34,778 bases of DNA, taken from positions 1 through 34,778 of the forward strand of contig JAGWBT010000006.1 of the NCBI GenBank assembly GCA_021295755.1. Direction: 5' to 3'. Source of the stretch: Candidatus Poribacteria bacterium (GTDB lineage: Bacteria > Poribacteria > WGA-4E > PCPOR2b). Positions within the stretch are counted from its first letter, which is position 1. Every line of letters starts with the position of its first letter. A program made the translations under genes and the position numbers. Under the pieces are notes generated by a model. The model made no database searches. It was not told the origin of the DNA and was given only the letters and a program-made list of their open reading frames with translations. Below, piece after piece: positions 32,907-34,778 of this stretch.

Positions 32907-33098
32907 CATTTGGTTATTTCTAATGGCTGTCGGGCATGAAAACTCGACCTACACCAGATTTATCGGGGTTGTCTAGATTCTGTTGACATTTGAAAATTGA
33001 GCCAATATTGATGTTCTTTGGACGTATTACCCTATCGGTTTAGAAAAATGGAAGTTTCCTACGAATTAGGCTTGCTTCTATGTCCTAGTGGGGCTATC

Positions 33099-33126
33099 GT
33101 AGGGAACAACGATCGTTGTTCCCTAC
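33099..33126. repeat. 28-bp perfect palindrome
   Basis: GTAGGGAACAACGA followed directly by its exact reverse complement. A second copy with one mismatch is at 34107-34134, on the other side of the methyltransferase gene. Confidence 0.8.
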
Positions 33127-34032: not shown

Positions 34033-34106
34033 TCCACCAGCAACCTACAATACGGTCATAATTAGCTTCTAACTGCAACCCATGTTAAGCAATGGTGGAA
34101 CGAACC

Positions 34107-34134
34107 GTAGGGAACAACGATCGTTGTTCCTTAC
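34107..34134. repeat. 28-bp palindrome, second copy
   Basis: The same GTAGGGAACAACGA plus reverse complement as at 33099-33126, with one base changed in the right arm (TTAC for CTAC). Confidence 0.78.
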
Positions 34135-34239
34135 TGCTTTTCTTTTGGATGAACCCTGTAGGCCGGGCACCAATGAACCAATGAACAATTTGTTTTCACG
34201 TTTCACGCATCACGTTTTATCAAAATCTTCCGTTCTAAA

Positions 34240-34260
34240 CCCCTGTCATTTATGGCGGGG
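34240..34260 (+). repeat. Bulged hairpin, candidate IS200/IS605 left-end structure
   Basis: CCCC, a lone T, then GTCAT, a TT loop region, then ATGGC and GGGG fold as a stem with a bulged T (one G-T wobble). Subterminal hairpins with a bulged T are the recognition sites of Y1 transposases in IS608-like elements. A TTAT at 34217-34220 lies 19 bases before the hairpin, resembling a left cleavage tetranucleotide. Confidence 0.4.
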
Positions 34261-34298
34261 ATACAGAACGGTAAACCCTGTTAGTCAGTCAAACAAGG

Positions 34299-34327
34299 TT
34301 GAAATTGCAGGCAAAAAATGGTATAAT
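34299..34327 (+). promoter_or_regulatory. Sigma70-type promoter for tnpB
   Basis: TTGAAA (34299-34304), a 17-bp spacer and TATAAT (34322-34327) make a strong promoter pointing at tnpB. The transcript would start near 34335 and include the inverted repeat at 34349-34394 in its leader. Confidence 0.65.
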
Positions 34328-34348
34328 TCTTCTGTCTTTCGTGGGGGA

Positions 34349-34394
34349 GTTTCAGCCCTATCGCACGATAGGGTCCCTCACAATCCACTGAAAC
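34349..34394 (+). repeat. Nested inverted repeat in the tnpB leader
   Basis: GTTTCAG (34349-34355) pairs with CTGAAAC (34388-34394). Directly inside the left arm CCCTATCG (34356-34363) pairs with CGATAGGG (34366-34373). The structure ends 26 bases before the tnpB ATG. It could be part of the element's end or control translation. Confidence 0.6.
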
Positions 34395-34420
34395 GGATAT
34401 GAAAGCCAGAAAGACAATCC

Positions 34421-34778
34421 ATGATGAAAACCTACAAGTTTAAGATGTATAGCAATCACGGCAATCGTGAGTGGAATCACTGCGTTGCCCTTCAGCGTCG
34501 TTACTACGCTATCTATGGCAAGTATATCAGCAAGTTTCGGTTGATAAATCATATATCTAAACTGAAACGTTTGCCTAAGTTCGCCCACTGGCATCAACTC
34601 CCCAGCCAAGCGATACAAGACGTGGCAGCTCGTATAGATAAAGGCTACAAGTCAATGTTTGAAGCCCGTGCATCAGGTAAGAAATGGGGTCGTCCCCGTT
34701 TCAAGCCACGTCGTAAGTATAAATCGTTCACACTGCTTCAAGCGGGTTGGAAACTTCTGCCCGGTAACAAGATTCGTA
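34421..34778 (+). mobile_element. tnpB: IS200/IS605 family TnpB (IS1341-type) coding start, cut by window end
   Basis: An open frame starting MMKTYKFKMYSNHGNREWN and continuing for 119 codons to the window edge. The order CVALQRRYYAIYGKYIS, LPKFAHWHQLPSQAIQDVAARIDKGYKSMFEAR and KKWGRPRFKPRRKYKSFTLLQAGWKL is the N-terminal helix-turn-helix and wedge region of TnpB (OrfB_IS605) proteins, the RNA-guided nucleases from which Cas12 derives. No tnpA (Y1 transposase) lies between the candidate left end and this gene, so it may be a tnpB-only element. The RuvC-like catalytic residues and the omega-RNA region lie beyond the window, so activity cannot be judged. Translation may start at 34421 or the next ATG, 34424. 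Confidence 0.85.

What the first reader, a model, noticed from the sequence alone, without database searches (positions are those of the whole stretch)
34217..34778. Likely tnpB-only element with its own promoter and a bulged-T end hairpin
A TTAT tetranucleotide, 19 bases, then a hairpin with a bulged T resembles the left end of IS608-type elements. A TTGAAA-17-TATAAT promoter and a nested inverted repeat precede a TnpB N-terminus. No tnpA is in between. If real, the element is a domesticated or tnpA-dependent RNA-guided nuclease locus in this phylum.
Basis: partly seen in the sequence, partly recalled or inferred. Interest (0 to 1): 0.5.

Follow-up and report, generated by a model that had tools for sequence, protein, structure and literature searches.

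The report
Two-state RNA switch before tnpB genes
A jumping gene in a bacterium related to Candidatus Poribacteria starts its message with a folded RNA that can close in two alternative ways right before the start codon, and many related genes carry the same RNA, so it probably controls how much of the RNA-guided DNA-cutting protein is made.

Summary
It is a tnpB-only IS200/IS605 element (IS1341 group) from a relative of Candidatus Poribacteria: multicopy and perhaps tnpA-dependent; I found no sign of domestication. This copy runs off the contig, and its TnpB lacks 11 N-terminal residues present in relatives.

The surprise is the "nested inverted repeat" (34334-34416). It is the 5' leader of tnpB: a covarying three-way-junction RNA with a bulge-loop pseudoknot. 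Its closing strand has two tandem 3' partners, the second just before the AUG. Both change in step with the 5' strand: 41 of 42 distinct leaders of one group have both, against 34 of 794 swapped controls. The two forms are often close in computed energy. A covariance model finds it in 59 of 84 genomes of the phylum, all in one order, before TnpB-like proteins only 12-41% identical. The tnpA loci tested lack it. Rfam has no credible match.

Most likely it is a translational switch for stand-alone tnpB. The structure is well supported; the function is inferred and its trigger unknown.

The parts
34217..34220 (+). TTAT target tetranucleotide flanking the left end; the element proper starts at 34221
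   Evidence: 15 other left ends start here +-1 nt with different flanks; empty sites of two other copies rejoin exactly after TTAT
34230..34271 (+). Left-end structure: outer stem CCGTTCT/AGAACGG around the hairpin 34240-34260 with unpaired T
   Evidence: sequence; other copies have CCAATCT/AGATTGG, a paired change
34299..34327 (+). tnpB promoter, TTGAAA-17-TATAAT
   Evidence: -10 box with at most 1 mismatch in 78 of 88 leaders against 117 of 1743 control windows; -35 with at most 2 mismatches in 56 of 88
34333..34340 (+). Leader RNA: 5' strand of closing helix P0 (+1 inferred near 34334)
   Evidence: covariation with both partner strands
34341..34381 (+). Stem A (34341-34348/34374-34381), bulge B (34349-34355), hairpin C (34356-34373, loop GCAC)
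   Evidence: helices A and C: 98.7 and 97.9% of cells paired over 67 leaders, 13 of 15 pairs with double changes
34383..34398 (+). Hairpin P4; its loop B' (34388-34394, CTGAAAC) pairs with bulge B (GTTTCAG): pseudoknot
   Evidence: B/B': 42 distinct complementary pairs of at least 6 bp; 99.2% of cells paired in A8, not modelled in the CMs. P4 itself seen by eye and in the fold, not counted
34399..34405 (+). P0 3' strand, copy 1 (ATGAAAG)
   Evidence: weaker partner in this copy
34409..34416 (+). P0 3' strand, copy 2 (GAAAGACA), 4 or 7 nt before the start codon
34421..34778 (+). tnpB 5' part; continues to the contig end 35435 (zinc finger TNB at C6:35249-35431); lacks 11 residues (33 bp, in frame) present in relatives

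Best explanation
The window ends in a tnpB-only IS200/IS605 (IS1341-group) element of a relative of Candidatus Poribacteria. In place of tnpA it carries its own promoter and a structured 5' leader. The transcript starts at the leader, which folds into a closing helix P0, stem A with hairpin C, and hairpin P4 whose loop locks into the bulge of A. P0 has one 5' strand but two tandem 3' partners, often of similar strength. Pairing with copy 1 leaves the stretch before the AUG free (ON). Pairing with copy 2 ties the 5' end onto that stretch and blocks the ribosome (OFF). Shown by sequence and covariation: the element, the leader, the pseudoknot, both alternative pairings and their location. Inferred: the transcript start, that the exchange controls translation, which state is ON, and that something (TnpB or its RNP, a small molecule, temperature, or co-transcriptional timing) biases it.
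For: Covariation over 67 leaders: 97.2% of cells paired and 314 double-change cells (0 of 500 shuffles reach either); 20 of 22 pairs with double changes (10 of 500 shuffles reach that). In A8 (35 sequences, MAFFT alignment not fitted to a model) 98.1% paired with the pseudoknot, 0 of 500; copy 2 alone 90.9%, 0 of 500. Both partner strands in 41 of 42 distinct f3-type leaders with 20 different 5' strands, against 34 of 794 swapped; in f1-type 43 of 70, against 3.7% of 700 across-group swaps. G-U 85 against A-C 12 cells, so sense-strand RNA. The -10 box lies 13-14 nt before stem A in 67 of 87 leaders. SD-like sites in 9 of 55 leader-bearing ORFs, against 14 of 21 window ORFs. The two closed forms lie within 2 kcal/mol in 40 of 70 evaluated leaders. 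In G040 30 of 33 leaders precede a TnpB. No leader in 15 tnpA loci.
Against: No expression or probing data. 27 of 70 f1-type leaders fail the two-partner threshold, this window's copy among them (second score 5, threshold 5.4); several are decayed. The within-group swap control for f1 is weak (21.7% of 2514), because the 5' strand varies little there. The copy-2 count has one high slid control: 72.2% paired at +2. Some measures are reached by shuffles (further pair types 38 of 500; pairs with double change 10 of 500, and 8 of 500). 18 of 48 TnpBs in G040 and 3 of 17 in G000 lack the leader. In this copy the copy-2 form is favoured by 6.3 kcal/mol. The energies leave out the pseudoknot and P4. 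No trigger is known.
Confidence: 0.55

Rival explanations
1. The leader mainly protects or processes RNA: a stable 5' end that blocks decay, or a self-cleaving or maturation element; the tandem copies are a by-product.
For: The structure starts at the inferred 5' end and is very stable (z -4.1). The order of stems and pseudoknot resembles that of HDV-like ribozymes (recalled).
Against: No ribozyme among the Rfam matches at E<=1. A by-product would hardly be kept in step with the 5' strand in 41 of 42 leaders. Hairpin C is long, unlike HDV P3 (recalled).
Confidence: 0.2
2. It is a ligand-sensing riboswitch: the three-way junction with bulge-loop kissing is an aptamer and the two P0 pairings are its expression platform.
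For: Compact junction, conserved loop and linker nucleotides, mutually exclusive helices near the start codon, shared by very different TnpBs, which fits an outside signal better than binding by each TnpB.
Against: Tied to tnpB, not to a metabolic pathway: 30 of 33 leaders in G040. No riboswitch family among the Rfam matches at E<=1.
Confidence: 0.2
3. It is a DNA-level transposition signal, such as a subterminal structure read by TnpA on single-stranded DNA.
For: It lies near the left end of an element that moves as single-stranded DNA (recalled for the family).
Against: G-U cells outnumber A-C 85 to 12. Its place is fixed relative to the promoter. No leader in the 15 tnpA loci tested. It persists before a host gene in G001.
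Confidence: 0.05

Closest known systems
IS1341-group (tnpB-only) IS200/IS605 elements, surveyed in PMC9956272 (passages seen)
   Same: One tnpB between left and right ends, no tnpA; five complete copies here are 1.34-1.44 kb
   Different: Carries a conserved structured 5' leader with a pseudoknot and two alternative closing helices; the passages seen mention none
IS200 tnpA 5' UTR in Salmonella (PMC12594629, passages seen)
   Same: A 5' leader structure of an IS200/IS605-family gene; there a stem-loop sequesters the ribosome-binding site and inhibits translation
   Different: Different gene (tnpA), an inverted repeat as described there; here tnpB, a three-way junction with pseudoknot and two exchangeable 3' strands
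omega-RNA of TnpB, and cis-inhibition by AmaTnpB mRNA (PMC10278001, passages seen)
   Same: RNA structure within the tnpB transcript; mRNA-borne regulation of TnpB is proposed there
   Different: The inhibitory region there is at nt 825-875 of the mRNA; this is the 5' leader. The leader model gave a second hit in only 2 of 90 loci, both on the other strand at the same place
RAGATH-18-derived RNAs of IS607 TnpBs (PMC11061315, abstract start in a search listing only)
   Same: A structured RNA found beside tnpB by comparative genomics
   Different: By that abstract the TnpB lies upstream of the RNA; here the RNA is upstream of tnpB

Membership tests
IS200/IS605 family, IS1341 group | TnpB with OrfB_IS605 and TNB zinc-ribbon domains | tested here: met
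   TNB at C6:35249-35431; complete relative L033 hits PF01385 and PF07282; the OrfB part of this copy is largely N
IS200/IS605 family, IS1341 group | Subterminal hairpin at both ends | tested here: met
   Left end in the window; right end only in complete relatives; this copy's right end is off the contig
IS200/IS605 family, IS1341 group | Insertion 3' of a short target, no target duplication | tested here: met
   Empty sites for two relatives of this copy; not testable for this copy itself
IS200/IS605 family, IS1341 group | No tnpA inside the element | tested here: met
   none between left end and tnpB; beyond the contig end not testable
IS200/IS605 family, IS1341 group | omega-RNA made from the 3' end | tested here: inconclusive
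   3' ends of five related copies are conserved and foldable (40 predicted pairs, 9 with double changes); no RNA data
Rfam 15 families (riboswitches, ribozymes, IS605-orfB, group I intron) | Covariance-model match | tested here: not met
   18 loci at E<=1 gave three weak matches, none near its gathering score: HgcC at a tnpB 3' end (E 0.021), UCA1 overlapping the leader of L047 (E 0.9, 19.8 of 80 bits), MIR6151 (E 0.58)
Riboswitch (functional sense) | Ligand-dependent structural change | not testable with these tools
   needs probing or binding assays
IStron (intron-bearing IS605) | Group I intron in the element | tested here: not met
   No group I intron among the Rfam matches at E<=1 in the 18 loci searched

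The most novel reading that the evidence does not exclude
A new class of riboregulator: a three-way-junction core with a kissing pseudoknot toggles one 5' strand between two near-identical 3' strands, and it senses the element's own products (TnpB, its RNP, or leaders of sister copies pairing in trans with the free strand), so that each stand-alone tnpB family limits its own nuclease by copy number.
Probability: 0.25. Interest if true: 0.85.

Novelty: new variant of a known kind. Interest (0 to 1): 0.7.

Why it matters
How stand-alone tnpB genes, relatives of Cas12 nucleases, are kept in check when no tnpA precedes them is, as far as I know, little studied. About 630 model matches in one bacterial order (my sum of the table) give a ready test set. 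The one-strand, two-partner design is a simple natural template for a translational switch, and no Rfam 15 family matched it credibly in the 18 loci searched.

Tried and rejected
Rejected: group I intron/IStron and known ribozymes or riboswitches (no such Rfam match); a DNA-only signal; a second copy of the leader at the 3' end; long-range pairing of the P0 strand with downstream sequence (isolated 7-mer hits in 5 of 18 f3 rows); domestication. No cognate tnpA was proven in the own genome: C74 is a small IS200/IS605-type TnpA, C22 and C149 look like REP-associated types (recalled naming). Literature: the listed papers include none on a tnpB 5' leader RNA by title and abstract start, but several lists were capped (for example 20 of 119, 10 of 132, 8 of 517, 12 of 127), and only open-licence PMC papers are held; 0 papers hold both Poribacteria and TnpB. 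Own errors: model R1 had one mistyped pair (column 1 with 99), corrected in R2; two of 72 rows of the energy comparison failed and count as no difference in its printed median; the first two-partner count merged neighbouring matches (two partners in 28 of 70 and 9 of 18) and was redone with another rule.

Full report
What was reported and whether it is there. The window is the first 34778 of 35435 bases of contig C6 of a 5.03-Mb draft genome. 34779-35109 reads N. The named genomes with the closest TnpB are Candidatus Poribacteria or uncultured Poribacteria; all 14 loci found carry that name.

The element. 34 places in the own genome, the window itself included, match the finding's stretch. Fifteen other left ends, picked from the BLAST hits that begin there, start within one base of 34217 with unrelated flanks. 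The outer left-end stem changes in a paired way between copies (CCGTTCT/AGAACGG, CCAATCT/AGATTGG). Five complete copies, two of them with stretches of N, are 1.34-1.44 kb and end in a hairpin and GTCAA. Joined flanks of three copies were searched in the six genomes of the genus. The alignments I looked at show uninterrupted empty sites for the C102 copy in G005, G004 and G003, and for the C39 copy in G001, each rejoining exactly after TTAT. Further hits span these joins at 74-80% identity (G002:C59, G002:C26, G003:C83, G005:C10) and were not inspected. For the third copy (C75) one hit reaches only 12 bases across the join (G002:C109). This is the IS200/IS605 pattern, in a tnpB-only element. 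This copy's TnpB lacks 11 residues; of 61 frames matched by a motif over the loci then held, 4 are short and all 4 are this same copy. It may be a mobilizable copy with an impaired nuclease (inference).

tnpA. Three Y1 domains were found in the own genome. None is shown to be the partner. In relatives, three tnpA-tnpB elements that I read (L197, L198, L204) have ends that look similar, and tnpB starts at or overlaps the tnpA stop. The leader model found nothing in 15 Y1 loci, a part of the Y1 matches listed.

The leader. It was first noticed because several matches covered only promoter plus repeat. A first covariance model found 23 hits with E below 1e-6 in the own genome and matches in 20 of 58 genomes, the own one included. 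R2 found it in 59 of 84 genomes of the phylum: 59 of 72 in the same order and 0 of 12 outside it, about 630 matches by my sum of the table. The models were built from some of these same loci. Helices P0, A and C over 67 leaders show 97.2% paired cells and double changes in 20 of 22 pairs; slid controls pair 40-50%. For that count I had left out 23 of the 90 loci (partial, degenerate or near-duplicate), and the alignment is fitted to the model, so it leans towards the structure. The pseudoknot was not part of any model. It shows 42 different complementary pairs of at least 6 bp, and 65 of 88 leaders reach the threshold against 78 of 1069 swapped; in A8 99.2% of its cells pair. The 88 are the 92 hits less L115, L152 and two reverse-strand second hits.

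Two partners. In the f3-type leaders (mostly from family f3) that were fetched, the 5' strand takes 20 different forms, and 41 of 42 distinct leaders hold two matching 3' strands; swapped controls do so in 34 of 794. For A8 I left out 7 divergent ones of those 42 (L108, L109, L113, L114, L123, L181, L185); there P0 pairs with copy 1 in 94.2% and with copy 2 in 90.9% of cells, but copy 2 slid by +2 still pairs in 72.2% of cells. Of the f1-type leaders (the other loci, one of them, L097, from family f3) 43 of 70 pass, against 3.7% of 700 across-group swaps, 3.4% of 1400 shuffles and 21.7% of 2514 within-group swaps; on the first f3 set 17 of 18 pass. Among leaders with two partners by the script's rule (72 of 88, two of which failed), the two forms differ by a median of 0.4 kcal/mol, and 40 of 70 are within 2.

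Context. The -10 box lies 13-14 nt before stem A in 67 of 87 leaders, which puts +1 near the P0 5' strand. Copy 2 lies just before the AUG, where SD-like sites are rarer than before other ORFs (9 of 55, the host gene of L137 among the 9; 14 of 21 window ORFs of at least 200 aa, not checked as genes). The 34 long leader-bearing TnpB-like proteins compared fall into seven clusters whose representatives are 12-41% identical; Pfam was run on members of two of them and on L088, which looks like the type of a third. In G000, 14 of 17 TnpBs with enough upstream sequence have the leader (19 found; 2 are cut by contig ends; C36, C86 and C28 lack it). In G001, 15 of 17 have it (3 further TNB hits below the cut-off were dropped), while 17 of 32 leaders have no TNB hit after them. 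In G040, 30 of 48 have it. In G001 one leader sits before a 614-aa host gene; 0 of 5 homologues in the genus have it. There copy 2 is replaced by an SD-like AGGAG.

Mechanism and status. The structure is strongly supported. That it switches translation is the best reading, at about 0.55, because the one helix with two partners ends near the start codon and its two forms are often balanced. What drives it is open. In this window's copy, copy 1 is the weaker partner.

Noticed in passing
L049:825-1100 (G000:C168); similar left ends followed by N in L048 and L050: A short copy keeps the left end and, after a stretch reading N, the 3' end of the tnpB region plus the right end, without room for tnpB: a MITE-like element that may still carry an omega-RNA scaffold. 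Only L049 was read to its right end.
   Followed up: partly
L056 (G000:C36 near 9313-9260): A micro-element of about 50 bases in which the left end is fused directly to the right end GGGCGGGGAGTATGTCAA.
   Followed up: no
L054:836-1011 (G000:C39:43135-43310): The same left end followed by another promoter, a good SD and an ORF start MKVETPDLKYK at the contig end; could be the missing tnpA partner, not shown.
   Followed up: partly
L137 (G001:C1:2207941-2208032): Leader and promoter directly before a host gene, in one of the six genomes of the genus: a possible exapted transposon leader.
   Followed up: partly
window 33098-33126 and 34106-34134: A 28-29-base palindromic repeat (AACAACGATCGTTGTT core), also in L067; a REP-like intergenic repeat.
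   Followed up: no
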